A DNA stretch of 56,600 nt from positions 1-56,600 of the forward strand of contig JALHRB010000019.1 in assembly GCA_022841665.1 (NCBI GenBank). The letters run 5' to 3'. The notes below the pieces were generated by a model. The model did not search any database. It saw only the letters and a program-made list of their open reading frames with translations, and was not told where the DNA came from. This document shows positions 12,097-39,874 of the stretch, piece after piece. Source of the stretch: Pseudolabrys sp. (GTDB taxonomy: Bacteria > Pseudomonadota > Alphaproteobacteria > Rhizobiales > Xanthobacteraceae). The position numbers and the translations under genes are program-made. Numbering within the stretch: the stretch's first letter is position 1; each line of letters begins with the position of its first letter.

Positions 12097-13644
12097 TTAG
12101 GCGATGCCGTGCCGGGCGAGCAGCTTGCGCACCGCCTCGACCAGTTCGCCTTCCTTGACCGCGAATTGCGCCTCGGCCTGCTTTTTCAGGTAGTCGTCGC
12201 GCTCTTTCGACAGGCCGGCGATTTCGGCGCCCAGGATCAGGTCCTTGATCTGCACCTCGCCTTTGGCCTTCTCGTCGCCGCCCTGGATGACCGCGCAAGG
12301 CGAGCCGCGCCGGTCGGCATATTTCATCTGGTTGCCGAAGTTCTTCGGGTTGCCGAGATACAATTCGGCGCGGATGCCGGCGTTGCGCAGGTTCGTGACC
12401 ATGCGTTGGTAGTCGGCGATGCGGTCGCGGTCGAACACGGTGACGACCACCGGGCCGGGCGCCGGCTTCGATGCGATCTTGCCGAGCGCGGTGAGCGCCG
12501 CCTGCAAACGCGACACGCCGATGGAGAAGCCGGTCGCGGGCGTTGGCTCGCCGCGGAAGCGCGACACCAGGCCGTCGTAGCGGCCGCCGCCGCCGACCGA
12601 GCCGAAGCGCACCGGGCGGCCTTTTTCGTCGCTGATCTCGAAGGTGAGTTCTACTTCGTAGACCGGGCCGGTGTAGTATTCGAGGCCGCGGACGACGGAT
12701 TGATCAATGCGAATTCGGTCACGTGTGTATCCGGCGGTCGCCACGAGGGACTCGATCTGCTGGAGTTCGTCCAAGCCAGTATTGCGCAAATCCCAACCGG
12801 GCTTGTTCGTATCGCCGTCTGGATACCAAATTTCGCCAGACACACCCAGCAATGGTTCATCATCGGCTGGCGTTAGTTGTCGTAATACAAGTCCAATTTG
12901 CTCGTCGGATAACAAAGCTCCTGCGGTGAAATCTCCTTTCCCTGGCTCGCCTCCGTCCCATCGGCCTGAACCAAGCAACTGCCTAACCCCCGTGACACCC
13001 AACCGATCTAACTTATCGATTGCTCTCAGCACCATAAGTCGCCGCTTAGCATTCTCCTCACCGCCAATGCCGATGCCTTCCATCAATCCGTCCAGCACCT
13101 TCCGATTATTCACCTTCACGACGTAGCTGCCGCGCGGAATGCCCAGCACTTCCATCGTGTCCGCCGCGAGCATGCACATCTCGGCGTCGGCCGCGATGGT
13201 CGGCGCGCCCACGGTGTCCGCATCGAACTGCATGAACTGGCGGAAGCGGCCCGGGCCCGGCTTCTCGTTGCGGAACACCCAGCCGAAGCGATACGAGCGA
13301 TAGGGCAGCGTAATGTGCTCGGTGCCGATGCGCTCCGCCACGTAGCGCGCCAGCGGCGCGGTCAGGTCGTAGCGCAGCGACAGCCACTGCTCGTCGTCGT
13401 CCTGGAACGAGAACACGCCTTCGTTCGGACGGTCCTGGTCGGGCAGGAACTTGCCGAGCGCGTCGGTGTATTCGATCGCCGGCGTTTCCACCGGCTCGAA
13501 GCCGTAGCGTTCGAACTGCAGCCTTATCTTCTCCACCATGTCGCGCGTGGCGGCGATCTCGGCCGGGCCGCGGTCGGCCAGGCCGCGCGGCAGGCGGGCC
13601 TTGAGCTTCTGCGGCTTGTTGGATTTTGCAGGTTTGTCCGTCAT
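12097..13644 (-). CDS. hisS: Histidyl-tRNA synthetase
   Basis: A 515-residue class II synthetase that charges tRNA-His. Motif 2 surroundings ([21 protein letters not shown]), the histidine-specific RGLEYYTG motif near residue 320 and motif 3 ([13 protein letters not shown]) are present. The C-terminal anticodon domain runs from about residue 405. From about 12690 to 13120 (residues 175-315, the domain inserted between motifs 2 and 3) the DNA has much lower GC and different codon use: 160 G+C of 300 at 12781-13080, by hand count. The frame stays open, so the gene looks functional. Confidence 0.95.
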
Positions 13645-13691
13645 CGTCGGCCTACATACCAGACACGCGGATTACGGCAACGCCCGTATCC

Positions 13692-13778
13692 GTCATGGCC
13701 GGGCTTGTCCCGGCCATCCATGCCTTTAAGAGTATAGTCAGCGAAGACTTGGATGCCCGGCACAAGGCCGGGCATGAC
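13692..13778. repeat. Two-hairpin dispersed repeat (GGCCGGGCTTGTCCCGGCC type)
   Basis: Left arm GTCATGGCCGGGCTTGTCCC plus CGGCCATCCATG; right arm TGGATGCCCGGCACAAGGCC plus GGGCATGAC. It closely matches the repeat at 37649-37736, including the inner spacer ending. It lies in the divergent gap between hisS and the aminotransferase gene. Confidence 0.88.
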
Positions 13779-13796
13779 GGCTGACAGGGTGGCGTC

Positions 13797-24317: not shown

Positions 24318-27300
24318 ATGTCGAAGCCCGAGCGCGATTATTCCGAGACCCTGTTCCTGCCGCAGACGGATTTTCCGATGCGTGCCGGCCTGCCGCAGAA
24401 GGAGCCCGAGCTCCTCAAGCGCTGGCAGGAGACCGATCTCTACAAAGAGCTGCGCGAGAGCGCCAAGGGGCGCGAGAAGTTCGTGCTGCACGACGGCCCG
24501 CCTTACGCCAACGGCAACATCCACATCGGCCACGCGCTCAACAAGATCCTCAAGGACGTGGTGACGCGCAGCCAGCAGATGCTCGGCTACGACTCGAACT
24601 ACGTGCCGGGCTGGGACTGCCACGGCCTGCCGATCGAGTGGAAGATCGAGGAGGAGAACTACCGCGCCAAGAACAAGGGCAAGCCGAACTTCTCGACGCC
24701 GGAGGCGATGGTCACCTTCCGCCAGGAGTGCCGCGCCTATGCCGAGCACTGGCTCAACGTGCAGCGCGAGGAGTTCAAGCGGCTCGGCGTCGAGGGCGAC
24801 TGGCAGCACCCCTATACGACGATGAGTTTCCCGGCCGAGGCGCAGATCGCGCGCGAACTGATGAAGTTCGCCGCCAACGGTACACTGTATCGCGGCTCCA
24901 AGCCCGTGATGTGGAGCGTGGTGGAGAAGACCGCGCTGGCGGAGGCCGAAGTCGAGTACGAGGATTACACGAGCGATACGGTGTGGGTGAAGTTTCCGGT
25001 CAAGAAACTCGAGCCCAAGGCTAAGTTCGAAGGCGAAGACATTGGCGAATGGGATCGTATCTGGCGTAAGGCTTCCGTCATCATTTGGACCACGACTCCG
25101 TGGACGCTTCCAGGCAACCGCGCGATCAGTTTCTCTCCAAAAGTGGAATACGGACTATACGAAGTAAAAGAAGCCCCTGAAGGTAATTGGGCCAAGGCCG
25201 GCGAATTCTACATCTTGGCCCAAAAACTTGCGGCCGACGTATTCAAGAGCGCAAAAGTATCTGAAGGCGCGTATGCGCTGAAGCGAACCTTATCCAACCT
25301 CGATTTTTCCGATGCTGAGTGCTGGCATCCTTTGAAGTCGCTAGGCGGTTACGATTTCATTGTGCCGCTACTAGCAGGCGATCATGTTACGGACACGGAC
25401 GGCACCGGCTTCGTGCACACCGCGCCCGGCCATGGCCGCGAGGACTTCGACGTTTGGACGGCCAACCGCGCATCGCTGGAAGCGCGCGGCATCAATCCGT
25501 CGATTCCCTACACCGTCGACGAGAACGGCGCCTTCACCGAGGCCGCGCCCGGCTTCACGGGCAAGCGCGTCATCAACGACAAAGGCGAGAAGGGCGACGC
25601 CAACGAGGCGGTGATCAAGGCGCTGGTCGAGGCGGGTATGATCATCGCGCGCGGCCGCCTCAAGCACCAATATCCGCACTCCTGGCGTTCGAAGAAGCCG
25701 GTCATCTTCCGCAACACGCCGCAGTGGTTCATCGCCATGGACAAGGGCATCGACAAGCCCTCCGACACGCTGCGCGCCCGCGCGCTGTCCGCCATCAAGG
25801 CCACCCGCTGGGTGCCGGCGGCCGGCGAGAACCGCATCAACGGCATGATCGAGTCGCGCCCCGACTGGGTGATCTCGCGCCAGCGCGCCTGGGGCGTGCC
25901 GATCGCCGTCTTCATCAAGGAGAAGCCGGACGGCTCGGTCGAGATCCTCGACGACCCCGAGGTGAAGGTCCGCATCGTCGAGGCCTTCGAGGCCGAAGGC
26001 GCCGACGCCTGGTACCGGCAAGGCGCGCGCGAACGCTTTCTGGGCAAGCGCGCCAACGAGCCGTGGAAGAAGGTCGACGACATCTGCGACGTCTGGTTCG
26101 ATAGCGGCTCCACGCACGCCTTCGTGCTGGAGGACCCCGAGCACTTCCCCTCGCTCGCCGGCATCAAGCGCAGAATCGACGGCGGCCGCGACACCGTGAT
26201 GTACCTGGAAGGCTCCGACCAGCACCGCGGCTGGTTTCATTCCTCGCTGCTGGAGTCGTGCGGCACGCGCGGGCGCGCGCCCTTCGACGTCGTGCTGACG
26301 CACGGCTTCGTGCTCGACGAGAACGGCCGCAAGATGTCCAAGTCGCTCGGCAACGTGGTCGCGCCGCAGGACGTGATCAAGCAGTCCGGCGCCGACATCT
26401 TGCGCATGTGGGTCTGCGCCTCCGATTACGCCGACGACCTGCGCATCGGCCCGGAAATCCTCAAGACCACCGCCGACACCTACCGCAAGCTGCGCAACAC
26501 CGTGCGCTGGATGCTCGGCTCACTCGCGCATTTCCATGAGGAGGACCGCGTCGCGCGCGACAAGATGCCGGAGCTGGAGCGGCTGATGCTGCACCGCTTG
26601 GCTGAGCTCGACTTAGCTGTGCGCAAGGCCTATGCCGATTTCGACTACAAGCGCATCTTCGCCGCGCTGTCGGCCTTCATGACCGCGGACCTGTCCGCCT
26701 TCTATTTCGACATCCGCAAGGACACGCTCTACTGCGACCCGCTCTCGTCGGTGAAGCGCAAGGCGAGCCTCACCGTCATCGACCACCTGTTCCGCTGCAC
26801 GGTGACCTGGCTTGCGCCCATGCTCTGCTTCACGGCCGAGGAGTCGTGGCTGTCGCGCTACGGCGCCGGCGCCAAGTCGGTGCATCTGGAGGCGTTCCCC
26901 GAGGTGCCCGCCGCCTGGCGCGATGACAAGCTCGCCGAGAAATGGCGCAAGGTGCGCATCGTGCGCGGCGTCGTCACCGGCGCGCTGGAGATCGAGCGCG
27001 CGCAGAAGCGCATCGGCTCGTCGTTGGAGGCGCATCCGATCGTGCACGTGTCGAACGCGGAGCTTTACGAGGCCGTCGTCGACGTCGACATGGCCGAGGT
27101 CTGCATCACCTCTGCGCTGACGTTGGTTGCCGACGAGGGCCCGGCAAACGCTTTCCGGCTGCCGGACGTTGCCGGCGTCGCGGTGATGCCGAATCTCGCC
27201 GAAGGCACCAAATGCGCGCGCTCGTGGAAGATCCTCACCACCATCGGCGCCGATCCCGCTTATCCGGATGTCAGCCCGCGCGACGCGCAGGCGCTGCGCG

Positions 27301-27332
27301 AGTGGGAAACGGCGCGCAAGGCCGCAGGGTAG
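24318..27332 (+). CDS. ileS: Isoleucyl-tRNA synthetase
   Basis: A 1004-residue class I synthetase. HIGH is at residues 69-72, KMSKS at about 672-676, and the editing-domain Thr-rich motif [11 protein letters not shown] is near residue 257. The C-terminal tRNA-binding region from about 700 is complete, so the protein looks functional. Between roughly 24960 and 25390 (residues 215-357, within the CP1 editing insertion) GC falls to about half: 88 of 180 at 25141-25320 by hand count, with codons such as TTA, CTA and GTA that are rare elsewhere here. The frame is uninterrupted. Confidence 0.97.
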
Positions 27333-27357: not shown

Positions 27358-27484
27358 GTCGTCCCCGCGCAGGCGGGGACCCATAACCACCGGACCTCGA
27401 CGAAAGGCCGGACTGAGGCAGTTGCGATACCTGCCTCACGAAATTGAAACGACACGGCGTATGGGCCCCGCCTGCGCGGGGCGA
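27358..27484. repeat. Two-hairpin dispersed repeat upstream of the GIY-YIG gene
   Basis: Left arm GTCGTCCCCGCGCAGGCGGG plus GACCCATA; right arm GTATGGGCCCCGCCTGCGCG plus GGGCGA. The inner part is longer than in other copies and includes GACTGAGGCAG...CTGCCTCA. It starts 25 bases after the ileS stop and ends 15 bases before the nuclease ATG. Confidence 0.82.
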
Positions 27485-27499
27485 AGTTGATATCGTCGC

Positions 27500-27781
27500 A
27501 TGTATTACGTCTACATGCTCGCGAGCAAACGTCATGGCACCTTGTACATCGGCGTGACCAATGACCTTCGCACAAGGCTCGAATTGCATCGTATGGGCAA
27601 AGGCTCTGAGTTCGTCAGGCAGTACAATGTCCATCGTCTGGTGTATGTCGAGTCCTACGAGAATGCAGAAGATGCAATTCGTCGTGAGAAACAACTAAAG
27701 AAATGGAATCGCGATTGGAAGATTCGGCTGATCGAGGAAGAGAATTTGGAATGGTGCGATCTCAGCCATTTGATCTCGTGA
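27500..27781 (+). CDS. Small GIY-YIG nuclease domain protein
   Basis: A 93-residue, single-domain GIY-YIG protein. YYVYMLASKRHGTLYIGVTNDL contains both catalytic signature strands (YVY and YIG), followed by the Arg in NDLRTRLELHR and the Glu in YENAEDAIRREKQLKKW. It belongs to the stand-alone group of small GIY-YIG proteins, whose role is poorly known; they lack extra DNA-binding domains. GC is about 48% (115 of 240 at 27541-27780, by hand), far below neighbours. Repeats begin 16 bases before and 11 bases after it. The cassette sits between ileS and lspA, which are normally adjacent. Confidence 0.88.
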   Translation: MYYVYMLASKRHGTLYIGVTNDLRTRLELHRMGKGSEFVRQYNVHRLVYVESYENAEDAIRREKQLKKWNRDWKIRLIEEENLEWCDLSHLIS

Positions 27782-27791
27782 TTATTCCGAT

Positions 27792-27930
27792 GTCGTCCCG
27801 GGCGAGCGAGCGAGGCCCGGGACCCATACGCCGTGTCCTATCGATAAGCTGCGGCGTCTGGGTCCCCGCCTTCGCGGGGACGACAAAATGTAAGATGCGG
27901 CGTCTGGGTCCCCGCCGGCGCGGGGACGAC
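27792..27930. repeat. Two-hairpin dispersed repeat with duplicated right arm
   Basis: Left arm GTCGTCCCGGGCGAGCGAGC plus GAGGCCCGGGACCCATACG. The right arm (GCGGCGTCTGGGTCCCCGCC...GGGGACGAC, 34 bases) occurs twice, at 27851-27884 and 27897-27930, separated by 12 AT-rich bases. The two copies differ only in the hairpin tip (TTC versus GGC). It ends five bases before the lspA ATG. Confidence 0.85.
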
Positions 27931-33497: not shown

Positions 33498-33582
33498 GTC
33501 ATCGCCGGGCTTGACCCGGCGATCCCGATAAGGGACGCATTGCCTTCTTAAACGGGATGGCCGGGACAAGCCCGGCCATGAC
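33498..33582. repeat. Two-hairpin dispersed repeat abutting arfB
   Basis: Left arm GTCATCGCCGGGCTTGACCC plus GGCGATCC; right arm GGATGGCCGGGACAAGCCCG plus GCCATGAC. It ends only five bases before the arfB start, so it occupies the expected ribosome-binding region (ATGACAAGCC). Confidence 0.85.
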
Positions 33583-37638: not shown

Positions 37639-37648
37639 GTCTCTCCAC

Positions 37649-37736
37649 GTCATGGCCGGGCTTGTCCCGGCCATCCATGTCTTTCTTGCAGACCGTGTAT
37701 AAAGACGTGGATGCCCGGCACAAGGCCGGGCATGAC
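37649..37736. repeat. Two-hairpin dispersed repeat (GGCCGGGCTTGTCCCGGCC type)
   Basis: Nearly identical to 13692-13778 in both arms, with a different 15-20 base centre (TTTCTTGCAGACCGTGTATAA). It fills the divergent gap between rluB and tadA and ends nine bases before the tadA ATG. Confidence 0.88.
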
Positions 37737-37745
37737 GGAGACTCG

Positions 37746-38445: not shown

Positions 38446-39201
38446 TCACGCCGCCGCGCTGAACAGCGTTTCGCGCAGCGCGCCGTTGACGCGGCGGTCG
38501 TACTCGTCCGCCAGCGCGTGCAGCGCCGACGCGCCATCGCCCTGGAATGACGGCCCGTGCATCAGCGCCAGCGTTTTCGGCGCGTACTTGGCGAGGCCGC
38601 GAATGGTCTTGCCCATGCCGGGATTGAGCGCCGAATACTGGAACAGGTTTTCGCCTTCCAGTGCCGCGCCGACGATGTCCTTGTCGGTCAGCGCCGGACC
38701 GTCGCCGAGTTGGGTGAACAGGTCGCCGCACAGGAGCGTGCCGGTCGATTCCTCGTACATCACGCCGGCGTCCCAGCCGTGCGGCGTATGCGGGGTATCG
38801 ATGAAGCGCACGCGCTTGCCGCCGCCGAGATCGATGACCTCGCCGTCGTTGAGAATGCGCGGAGGGCGGTCGGCGAAGTCGTTGAGCGACACCATGCTGC
38901 CGGTATTGCCGTGCGCGGCCTGCGCCTGCGGGGCGGCGGCGAGCCATTCGTTCATGGCGCCGCATTCGTCGGCCTCGAAATGGCCGTAGCTGATCCAGCG
39001 CAGCTTCTCCGGCGGGATGATGCGGCGCACGGCGTCCAGGTTGAGCGGAAACATCTTGCGCAGGCCGGTGTGGAACATGAGCGGCTCGTCGCCCAGCACG
39101 AGAAACTGGTTGAAGACGAAGCCGGCGGGCGGGGCGATCTCGGGCACGAAGGTCGAGAGGCGGTAGATGCCGTCGGCGATTTCATTGACTTTGGTTTCCA
39201 T
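38446..39201 (-). CDS. MBL-fold metallo-hydrolase, flavodiiron/ODP-like
   Basis: A 251-residue metallo-beta-lactamase-fold protein. H74-x-E76-x-D78 in YGHFEADECGAMNEW resembles the H-x-E-x-D ligands of flavodiiron-type proteins rather than HxHxDH. DTPHTPHGWDAG and LLCGDLFTQLG supply further ligands (His and Asp). It has no flavodoxin domain, so it may be an ODP-like di-iron protein sensing or reducing oxygen or NO, or a hydrolase. ATG 39201 (METKVNEIADGIYRL) is chosen over 39237. It is divergent from a TetR gene and followed by the DUF1127 gene. Confidence 0.83.
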   Translation of the reverse strand: METKVNEIADGIYRLSTFVPEIAPPAGFVFNQFLVLGDEPLMFHTGLRKMFPLNLDAVRRIIPPEKLRWISYGHFEADECGAMNEWLAAAPQAQAAHGNTGSMVSLNDFADRPPRILNDGEVIDLGGGKRVRFIDTPHTPHGWDAGVMYEESTGTLLCGDLFTQLGDGPALTDKDIVGAALEGENLFQYSALNPGMGKTIRGLAKYAPKTLALMHGPSFQGDGASALHALADEYDRRVNGALRETLFSAAA

Positions 39202-39231
39202 GGCGGGTCTCCAGGACAGGGGTAAATTTCG

Positions 39232-39299
39232 ATGCACAATGGCGTATAATGAAATTTCGGCCTTGTCAATATTGAATGCACATGATAGTGTATTGAAAT
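39232..39299. promoter_or_regulatory. Candidate operator pair between the MBL-fold and tetR genes
   Basis: Two 24-base direct repeats, 39232-39255 (ATGCACAATGGCGTATAATG...) and 39276-39299 (ATGCACATGATAGTGTATTG...), match at 17 of 24 positions, spaced 44 bases apart. Between them is the palindrome CAATATTG (39267-39274). The minus strand has TTGACA (39269 to 39264), and the plus strand has TATAAT (39245-39250). The 100-base gap is strikingly AT-rich. The layout suits a divergent promoter controlled by the TetR-family protein. Confidence 0.55.
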
Positions 39300-39301
39300 A
39301 A

Positions 39302-39874
39302 ATGGCACGAACCTACACCCTGAAAAAGCGGGCCGAGCAGCAGGCGGAGACCCGCCAGCGCATCGTCGAGGCGGCTGTCGAGCTGCACAGCGCCATTGGG
39401 CCTGCGCAGACCAGCCTGAGTATGGTGGCGGAGAAGGCCGGCGTTCAGCGCCACACGCTCTATGCCCATTTCCCGGACGAGCGGGCTTTGCTGGTGGCCT
39501 GTTCGGGCTTGACGGCGGAGCGCGCTCCGCTGCCGGACGCCACGCCGTGGCGCGCGATCGCGGACCGGCAGGAACGCCTGCGCACGGGGCTCACGGAAAT
39601 CTACGGCTGGTATGAGCGCAACGCGACGCGCGCGGCCTGCGTGCTACGCGACGCCGAGAGTCACGCGCTCACCCGGGAGATATCGAAGATGCGCTTCGGG
39701 CCGTTCATGGCGGCCTACCACGAGGTGCTCGGCGAAAAGCTCGACGCCCGGCAACGCGCGGTCCTGCACCTCGCGCTGAGCTTCTACACCTGGCGGAATC
39801 TGGTGTCCGAGAGCGGCCTTCAGCCGGCGGTCGCGGTCGCGGTGATGGTGCAGGCGATCGAAGGCGCGGGGTAG
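39302..39874 (+). CDS. TetR/AcrR-family transcriptional regulator
   Basis: A 190-residue regulator. The N-terminal helix-turn-helix spans about residues 14-60: RQRIVEAAVELHSAIGPAQT, then LSMVAEKAGVQRHTLYAHFPDE, which is the TetR recognition helix and following turn. The C-terminal ligand/dimer domain is helical, with no recognisable inducer class. It is divergent from the MBL-fold gene across a 100-base gap carrying two near-matching direct repeats. It is most likely the autoregulated repressor of that gene and of the DUF1127 gene downstream. Confidence 0.88.
   Translation: MARTYTLKKRAEQQAETRQRIVEAAVELHSAIGPAQTSLSMVAEKAGVQRHTLYAHFPDERALLVACSGLTAERAPLPDATPWRAIADRQERLRTGLTEIYGWYERNATRAACVLRDAESHALTREISKMRFGPFMAAYHEVLGEKLDARQRAVLHLALSFYTWRNLVSESGLQPAVAVAVMVQAIEGAG

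What the first reader, a model, noticed from the sequence alone, without database searches (positions are those of the whole stretch)
24960..25390. Second low-GC block, in the CP1 editing domain of ileS
88 of 180 bases at 25141-25320 are G or C, with TTA, CTA, GTA and AAA codons that are rare in the rest of the window. It covers residues about 215-357, within the CP1 insertion, including the Thr-rich editing motif. HIGH and KMSKS regions are normal. Seeing the same event in two aminoacyl-tRNA synthetases of one window, each limited to an inserted domain, is unlikely by chance. It suggests exchange of editing or insertion modules, for example as resistance to a synthetase inhibitor or adjustment of editing.
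Basis: partly seen in the sequence, partly recalled or inferred. Interest (0 to 1): 0.75.

Follow-up and report, generated by a model that had tools for sequence, protein, structure and literature searches.

The report
Swapped low-GC blocks in tRNA enzymes
In this bacterium and its sister species, one inner or end segment of several enzymes that handle transfer RNA appears to have been replaced again and again by very different, AT-richer versions, while the rest of each gene stays almost unchanged; why it happens and where the new pieces come from is unknown.

Summary
ileS (24318-27332) has a sharp GC3 drop at residues ~235-357 (0.54 against 0.92). In the genus (Pseudolabrys, inferred from one record title) the same block is low in GC in 15 of 39 ileS copies, scattered over the tree (at least 12 changes among 36 rows). 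In four close pairs the flanks are 89-92% identical and the block 56-64%, with edges near residues 221-228 and 336-344. Silent sites in the block are far more changed than in flanks or spacers, so simple relaxation fails; replacement by divergent DNA fits best. The hisS insertion domain and the C-terminal half of cysS behave alike; mnmE has a variable low-GC tract in nearly every species examined; valS a smaller block. In a 270-gene comparison of two species the five strongest blocks are in tRNA enzymes, one of them only a tail, with ascertainment caveats. No donor was found. Editing motifs are present, so resistance or altered editing is unsupported. Local hypermutation or selection remains a serious rival.

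The parts
24318..27332 (+). ileS, isoleucyl-tRNA synthetase, 1004 aa
   Evidence: Pfam PF00133 E 6e-129 and Anticodon_1; closest solved chains are named isoleucine--tRNA ligase, E 3e-209
24960..25391 (+). divergent low-GC block, residues 215-358: N-terminal part of the CP1 editing insertion (domain name from general knowledge), including the Thr-rich motif; maximum-likelihood GC3 drop at residues 235-357 (25020-25388)
25002..25070 (+). hypervariable-length loop, residues ~229-251, between KFPV and [10 protein letters not shown]; in two relatives it holds an in-frame palindromic repeat
   Evidence: alignment; repeat copies
25086..25118 (+). conserved Thr-rich editing motif [11 protein letters not shown] (residues 257-267) inside the block
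   Evidence: translation, alignment
25401..25436 (+). conserved second editing motif [12 protein letters not shown], just after the right edge of the block
   Evidence: translation, alignment
12100..13644 (-). hisS, histidyl-tRNA synthetase (coding part without stop)
   Evidence: Pfam PF13393 E 2e-39; solved HisRS relatives
12646..13110 (-). low-GC block of hisS (insertion domain, about residues 179-333; most variable at 206-290), same kind of feature
   Evidence: LR 74.9; genus comparison; residues 222-284 not aligned to the best HisRS structure

Best explanation
In Pseudolabrys the outer segments of a few tRNA enzymes (CP1 of IleRS, the insertion domain of HisRS, the C-terminal half of CysRS, perhaps part of ValRS and MnmE) are replaced repeatedly and independently by divergent, AT-richer homologous segments. 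Most likely, DNA from other, unsampled alphaproteobacteria recombines at the strongly conserved stretches on each side of the segment, so that catalytic core, reading frame and key motifs are kept. Shown: sharp edges, block-only divergence, strongly raised silent change, many independent origins in ileS, concentration in tRNA enzymes in the genes sampled. Inferred: recombination as the mechanism, an outside source, and selection (probably diversifying, by an agent or partner that meets the tRNA-bound enzyme) as the reason these genes are hit. The window's ileS block is one such derived block.
For: Close pairs: L005/L009 flank 92.3% nt, block 63.5%; L014/L018 91.4/58.7; L007/L037 89.4/55.6; L006/L024 91.1/64.0. 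The best divergent block lies within residues 221-344 in these four pairs and at 228-361 for window against L031, 2lnLR 98-147 against at most 28 in 200 permutations; window against L002 gives 79 (residues 230-362). Two control pairs with conserved blocks show none there. 4-fold sites in the ileS block differ 0.56-0.63 (37-41 sites, JC 1.0-1.4) against 0.19-0.24 in flanks for the four pairs; cysS G033/G004 0.72 (18 of 25) against 0.25. Spacers of G004 and G033 average 79% identity (39 compared). GC3 at amino-acid-invariant positions is 0.56 in 13 low blocks and 0.86 in their flanks. Genus-diagnostic residues: 14 low blocks 41 genus, 62 order, 93 other; their flanks 655, 90, 83. In the C-half, several low blocks are nearest to other families (L031 to an f2 genome, 0.72); genus as one clade rejected at p-AU 0.035. 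At least 12 state changes among 36 rows. The five top-ranked of 270 genes are tRNA enzymes. Seen in the single-contig genome G004, in frame, so not a bin artefact there.
Against: No donor: best window-block matches are 63% over full length and 69% over part in 397 order genomes, 61% and 71% in 391 family genomes, 58% in the genome-contig scan, 54% in plasmids, 41% in phages, and 20 residues in one viral contig. Strongly diverged blocks are nearly always AT-richer (the low class is defined by GC3), although sampled Rhizobiales relatives are mostly GC-rich. Block GC3 runs as a continuum from 0.44 to 0.86. Silent divergence of the block is raised even between two high-GC species (cysS 0.41 against 0.21, ileS 0.31 against 0.23 and 0.25 against 0.15). 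mnmE is low in nearly all 29 copies; its silent excess and that of hisS are small. Only 39 of 104 spacers could be compared, so the spacer mean may be too high. The family is not rejected as one clade (p-AU 0.184), and the window's own block falls in a weakly supported group with most of genus and family. ileS and cysS states correlate (rho 0.52, p 0.006, n=27, not corrected for phylogeny), which separate imports do not predict.
Confidence: 0.5

Rival explanations
1. Evolution in place: the segment sits in a tolerant outer domain and, in some lineages, accumulates substitutions and in-frame indels very fast under relaxed or diversifying selection, drifting to the AT-richer mutational equilibrium because codon selection is locally ineffective.
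For: Low blocks have GC near, and a little below, that of spacers (0.46-0.56 against 0.59 in G004). Continuum of GC3 values. Silent divergence already raised between high-GC pairs. mnmE tract low in nearly every species. Long terminal branches for low blocks. Correlation of ileS and cysS states. No donor found.
Against: In ileS and cysS same-amino-acid codons are changed 2-3 times more than in flanks, and 4-fold divergence (JC 1.0-1.4; over 2 in cysS) exceeds spacers (JC about 0.24 at the mean, 0.55 for the most diverged of 39), which needs a locally raised mutation rate. Several fast-evolving genes of the G004/G033 comparison keep high GC3.
Confidence: 0.32
2. Old alleles shared across species: several ancient block types are kept in the genus by balancing or frequency-dependent selection and sort or recombine between species.
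For: Low blocks lack genus-diagnostic residues and partly carry the order consensus; low and high states alternate between close species.
Against: Almost no two low blocks are alike: apart from L021/L042 (0.78) and L040 with the high-GC L025 (0.76), each of the 15 low blocks is at most 0.67 identical to any other genus block over residues 270-358 (L006 matches only its own second record L142). Within-species variation could not be examined.
Confidence: 0.1
3. Selfish palindromic repeats insert into permissive loops of these genes and then decay, creating low-GC, hypervariable tracts.
For: In-frame, multi-copy inverted-repeat elements sit in ileS of L007 and L026 and in leuS of the window's genome.
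Against: The elements are GC-rich (0.63-0.67 with their edges), and the window's low-GC block covers more than 100 codons of alignable protein with no similar copy elsewhere in the 457-kb sample.
Confidence: 0.04
4. Assembly or binning artefact (chimeric contigs).
For: Many of the genomes are fragmented assemblies.
Against: Present in the single-contig genome G004 in ileS and cysS, and smaller in valS, in frame; the two-contig genome G019 has a milder ileS dip (L023).
Confidence: 0.02

Closest known systems
Mosaic genes made by intragenic homologous recombination (for example mosaic penA of Neisseria; recalled, not searched)
   Same: A divergent segment with sharp edges inside an otherwise vertically inherited essential gene.
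   Different: Here it recurs at the same place in over a third of the ileS copies, nearly each time with a different sequence, in several genes of one functional class, and with no donor identified.
Horizontal transfer and homeoalleles of aminoacyl-tRNA synthetases (PMC3191353, seen only as a listing with the start of its abstract; the term homeoalleles is recalled)
   Same: Synthetase genes are known to be exchanged between lineages.
   Different: Known cases as I recall them concern whole genes; here only an inner or terminal segment changes while the core is vertical.
Rickettsial palindromic elements inserted in protein genes (recalled; Rickettsia papers only listed)
   Same: In-frame inverted-repeat inserts occur in ileS of two relatives and in leuS of this genome.
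   Different: They do not account for the low-GC block.
Mupirocin resistance by a second ileS (recalled)
   Same: Involves variation of IleRS.
   Different: One strong ileS match in G000, catalytic core of normal composition.

Membership tests
Intragenic recombinant (mosaic) gene | Divergence confined to one segment with sharp edges | tested here: met
   2lnLR 98-147 against at most 28 in 200 permutations for five pairs
Intragenic recombinant (mosaic) gene | Block tree conflicts with flank tree | tested here: met
   Genus one supported clade with flanks, rejected as one clade with the block at p-AU 0.035; weak, since few columns and the family is not rejected (0.184)
Intragenic recombinant (mosaic) gene | Synonymous as well as amino-acid sites diverged in the segment | tested here: met
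   ileS and cysS; hisS and mnmE only slightly
Intragenic recombinant (mosaic) gene | Identifiable donor or parental sequence | tested here: not met
   Window block only: no close match in order, family, genome contigs, plasmid, phage or viral scans
Functional bacterial IleRS | HIGH and KMSKS regions and both editing motifs present | tested here: met
   Translation and alignment, Pfam; activity not testable here
Inhibitor-resistance exchange of IleRS | Change at or near the inhibitor site, or a second copy | tested here: not met
   Core composition normal; one ileS match in G000 at E 1e-100, the next listed match, E 1.6e-18, is valS
Inhibitor-resistance exchange of IleRS | Resistance phenotype | not testable with these tools
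   needs enzyme assays

The most novel reading that the evidence does not exclude
Outer, tRNA-contacting domains of several tRNA enzymes in this bacterial lineage are under recurrent diversifying selection, kept variable by domain-cassette exchange, because an as yet unknown agent (toxin, phage factor or small molecule) recognises the enzyme-tRNA complex: an arms-race surface on essential housekeeping enzymes.
Probability: 0.15. Interest if true: 0.9.

Novelty: new variant of a known kind. Interest (0 to 1): 0.62.

Why it matters
Essential tRNA enzymes are often used as stable phylogenetic markers (general knowledge). A lineage in which their outer domains are swapped or hyper-diversified in many species while the cores are conserved would show how modular these enzymes are, would mislead trees built on them, and may point to an unknown selective agent aimed at tRNA enzymes. 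It is testable with strain-level genomes and enzyme assays.

Tried and rejected
Donor searches with the window's block in order, family, all-species contigs, plasmids, phages and viral contigs found nothing close; blocks of other species were not used as queries there. Relaxation to neutrality rejected for ileS and cysS because same-amino-acid codons and 4-fold sites are more changed than flanks and spacers; not excluded for hisS and mnmE. Palindromic elements rejected as the cause. Apparent low-GC blocks in TctC, flagellin, TolB and PdhB genes dropped as over-long N-termini (inferred from where the family domain begins). argS dropped as a domain case: its variable part is a Lys/Ala-rich N-terminal stretch; a loop of an MFS transporter likewise. 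Variable N-terminal parts of rho, lptG and lptD ORFs not followed. Link between ileS and cysS states is not significant with independent pairs (median p 0.375). Paper searches listed no report that I recognised as this pattern; the library is limited to open-licence papers and I saw only the listings.

Rows left out: of 43 genus genomes, 39 gave an ileS copy over the block. L040 (frameshift) was left out; L011 from the low group; L036 from 47 and 78; L041 from 78; one partial cysS locus (L337) and one mnmE locus with an internal stop (L360), which used 29 of 30 loci fetched for each (41 and 42 genomes matched); L339, reported with a stop, was kept. hisS used 30 of 40 genomes with matches. One search tested 270 of the 303 orthologs. 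In one search, 39 of 104 ORF-free stretches could be compared. leuS was compared only over the part held in the loci. Not examined: alaS, gltX, glyQS, pheST, trpS, tyrS; argS only in one pair. In one search my labels proS and serS were exchanged and the lysS-like gene is epmA; one search corrected the names.

Full report
What is there. The window gene at 24318-27332 (+) is ileS. Residues 215-358 (24960-25391) are poor in G+C: 88 of 180 bases at 25141-25320. GC3 is 0.54 at residues 235-357 and 0.92 elsewhere (2dlnL 102.5). The block begins after a conserved stretch ([34 protein letters not shown]), contains the Thr-rich editing motif and ends just before the second editing motif.

Is it unusual in this genome? 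I sampled 400 kb of the same genome by contig number plus the window. With a test that demands 60 GC3-rich codons on each side, ileS is first (LR 100.5) and hisS second (74.9) of 300 genes of at least 200 codons; the next lies in pyruvate dehydrogenase E2 (32.7). The hisS block covers the insertion domain. The window is part of the sample, which favours these two genes; the other 400 kb gave no block of this strength.

The genus. One record title (L142, a Pseudolabrys MAG contig of the same length as, and identical in ileS to, that of G013) points to Pseudolabrys. Of 43 genus genomes, 39 gave an ileS copy over the block; 15 have block GC3 under 0.65 with GC3-rich flanks (one of them, L040, has a frameshift further on). 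High-GC blocks of close species are alike (up to 0.98). The low ones are at most 0.67 identical to any other genus block over residues 270-358, except L021/L042 (0.78) and L040 with L025 (0.76). On the flank tree low and high states are mixed, at least 12 changes for 14 low rows of 36. Low-GC variants of the same block also occur outside the genus, for example L043 and L044, L144 and L148, while most Bradyrhizobium relatives have none.

Sharp edges. In close pairs the divergence is confined to the block: L005/L009, L014/L018, L006/L024 and L007/L037 have flanks 89-92% identical in DNA and blocks 56-64%. A scan for the most divergent block finds residues 228-344, 221-336, 227-339 and 227-344, and for the window against its nearest relative L031 residues 228-361; 2lnLR 98-147 against maxima of 19-28 in 200 permutations; window against L002 gives 79 against 22. 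Control pairs L010/L015 (best block elsewhere, 23.6 against 23.3) and L004/L032 (14.8 against 22.9) show nothing there. L024/L032 show a second place, residues 866-959.

Relaxation or replacement? At amino-acid-invariant positions GC3 is 0.56 in 13 low blocks and 0.86 in their flanks; high blocks have 0.85. Codons for the same amino acid are changed 0.50-0.57 of the time in the block against 0.20-0.24 in the flank for the four pairs; 4-fold sites give JC distances of 1.0-1.4 against 0.2-0.3. Spacers between genes of G004 and G033 are 79% identical on average, 61% at worst (39 of 104 stretches comparable). A coding block more diverged at silent sites than spacers is hard to explain by loss of constraint alone; it needs older DNA brought in, or a raised local mutation rate. 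Against this, the block is somewhat raised at silent sites even between high-GC species (0.25-0.41 against 0.15-0.23). The low blocks have lost the genus-diagnostic residues (41 genus, 62 order, 93 other states, against 655, 90, 83 in their own flanks). This test is softened by 13 other family members, mostly Bradyrhizobium, whose blocks give 69, 40, 73. Over residues 270-358 several low blocks are as near to other families as to their genus (L031, L011, L009, L039, L018, L001). In the block tree the genus is rejected as one clade at p-AU 0.035, but the family is not (0.184), and few columns support the tree. L021 and L042 keep mostly genus-like residues (9 and 7 of 14) and look like older or in-place cases.

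Other genes. Nine synthetases and epmA were compared in four or five genomes (names checked). Besides ileS and hisS, valS shows a smaller block in G004 (min50 0.40, rest 0.95, GC3 0.60 against 0.91 in G026) and an AT-rich insert in G011; leuS of the window's genome has an insert of about 42 residues that is a palindromic repeat; thrS, serS, proS, aspS, metG and epmA show nothing below 0.54. Four syntenic regions of G004 and G033, 270 genes tested, were scanned for internal blocks. By identity the top five are ileS (149.9), argS (135.5, a Lys/Ala-rich N-terminal stretch), cysS (125.4; identity 0.42 against 0.92, GC3 0.47 in G004 and 0.85 in G033), hisS (102.5) and mnmE (93.9); a TPR protein follows (67.5), and valS is tenth (47.6). 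cysS was named and mnmE, a tRNA-modifying GTPase. All four regions were chosen because they hold synthetases, and the ileS/hisS and valS ones because a block was already known; only cysS, mnmE and argS were found blind. In the genus, cysS has a low C-terminal half (GC3 0.60 or less) in 12 of 29 copies, the window's genome included (0.55). The mnmE tract has GC3 0.45-0.69 in all 29, below its N-terminal half in nearly all (hardly in G063, whose whole gene is AT-rich). States of ileS and hisS correlate weakly (rho 0.39), ileS and cysS more (0.52, p 0.006; not significant in independent pairs).

Donor. None found for the window's block: order (397 genomes), family (391), genome contigs, plasmids, phages, viral contigs. 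The listings are capped, best first. Donors of other species' blocks were not sought in these.

Interpretation. Replacement of outer domains by divergent, AT-richer homologous DNA through the conserved stretches on both sides explains edges, silent divergence and scattered origins. Its weak points are the missing donor, the nearly constant AT-richness of the derived blocks, the continuum of GC3, the mild silent excess between high-GC species, and mnmE. Fast evolution in place with a locally raised mutation rate is the main rival; I moved a little weight to it after rechecking the high-GC control pairs. Why tRNA enzymes are hit is open: the affected segments are outer domains that, from general knowledge of these families, contact tRNA or lie near its binding site, and diversifying selection on them is the boldest reading not excluded. 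Nothing points to inhibitor resistance or altered editing: both editing motifs are present in the 55 aligned copies, with small variants such as APSHG in L019, and the core is normal.

Known or new. Mosaic genes and exchange of whole synthetase genes are known. A recurrent, domain-limited replacement in several tRNA enzymes of one genus was not seen in the listings of eight paper searches of an open-licence library. I rate it a new variant of a known kind.

Noticed in passing
L229 (leuS of the window's genome, G000:C3); L007 and L026 (ileS): In-frame palindromic repeat elements inside leuS of this genome and inside the CP1 loop of ileS in two relatives; the leuS one has 16 and the L007 one 23 blastn hits in the 457-kb genome sample, some hits being the two orientations of one copy.
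   Followed up: partly
window 13689-13780, 33498-33582, 37641-37743, 282-322: Full or partial copies of the palindromic element found in ileS of L007 and L026.
   Followed up: no
L024, ileS residues 866-959 (window numbering): A second divergent low-GC block near the C-terminus of ileS, against the close relative L032.
   Followed up: partly
L327 (cysS) and L356 (mnmE) of the window's genome: Low-GC C-terminal half of cysS (GC3 0.55; 0.92-0.97 in the first 300 residues) and a low-GC tract in mnmE (GC3 0.14-0.55 over residues 341-460).
   Followed up: yes
L043 (ileS of another family, G036): An extra stretch of about 41 residues soon after the second editing motif, unique in the alignment.
   Followed up: no
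L268:15427-17736 (argS of G004): Lys/Ala-rich, length-variable stretch upstream of the argS domain; may be a real tail or an over-long ORF.
   Followed up: no
G019 mnmE (L360) and G065 cysS (L339): One in-frame stop codon reported inside each match; sequencing error or real, not checked.
   Followed up: no
window 27471-27860 and 39101-39410: Other low-GC stretches of the window; the first lies between ileS and the next gene, the second around the start of two divergent ORFs.
   Followed up: no
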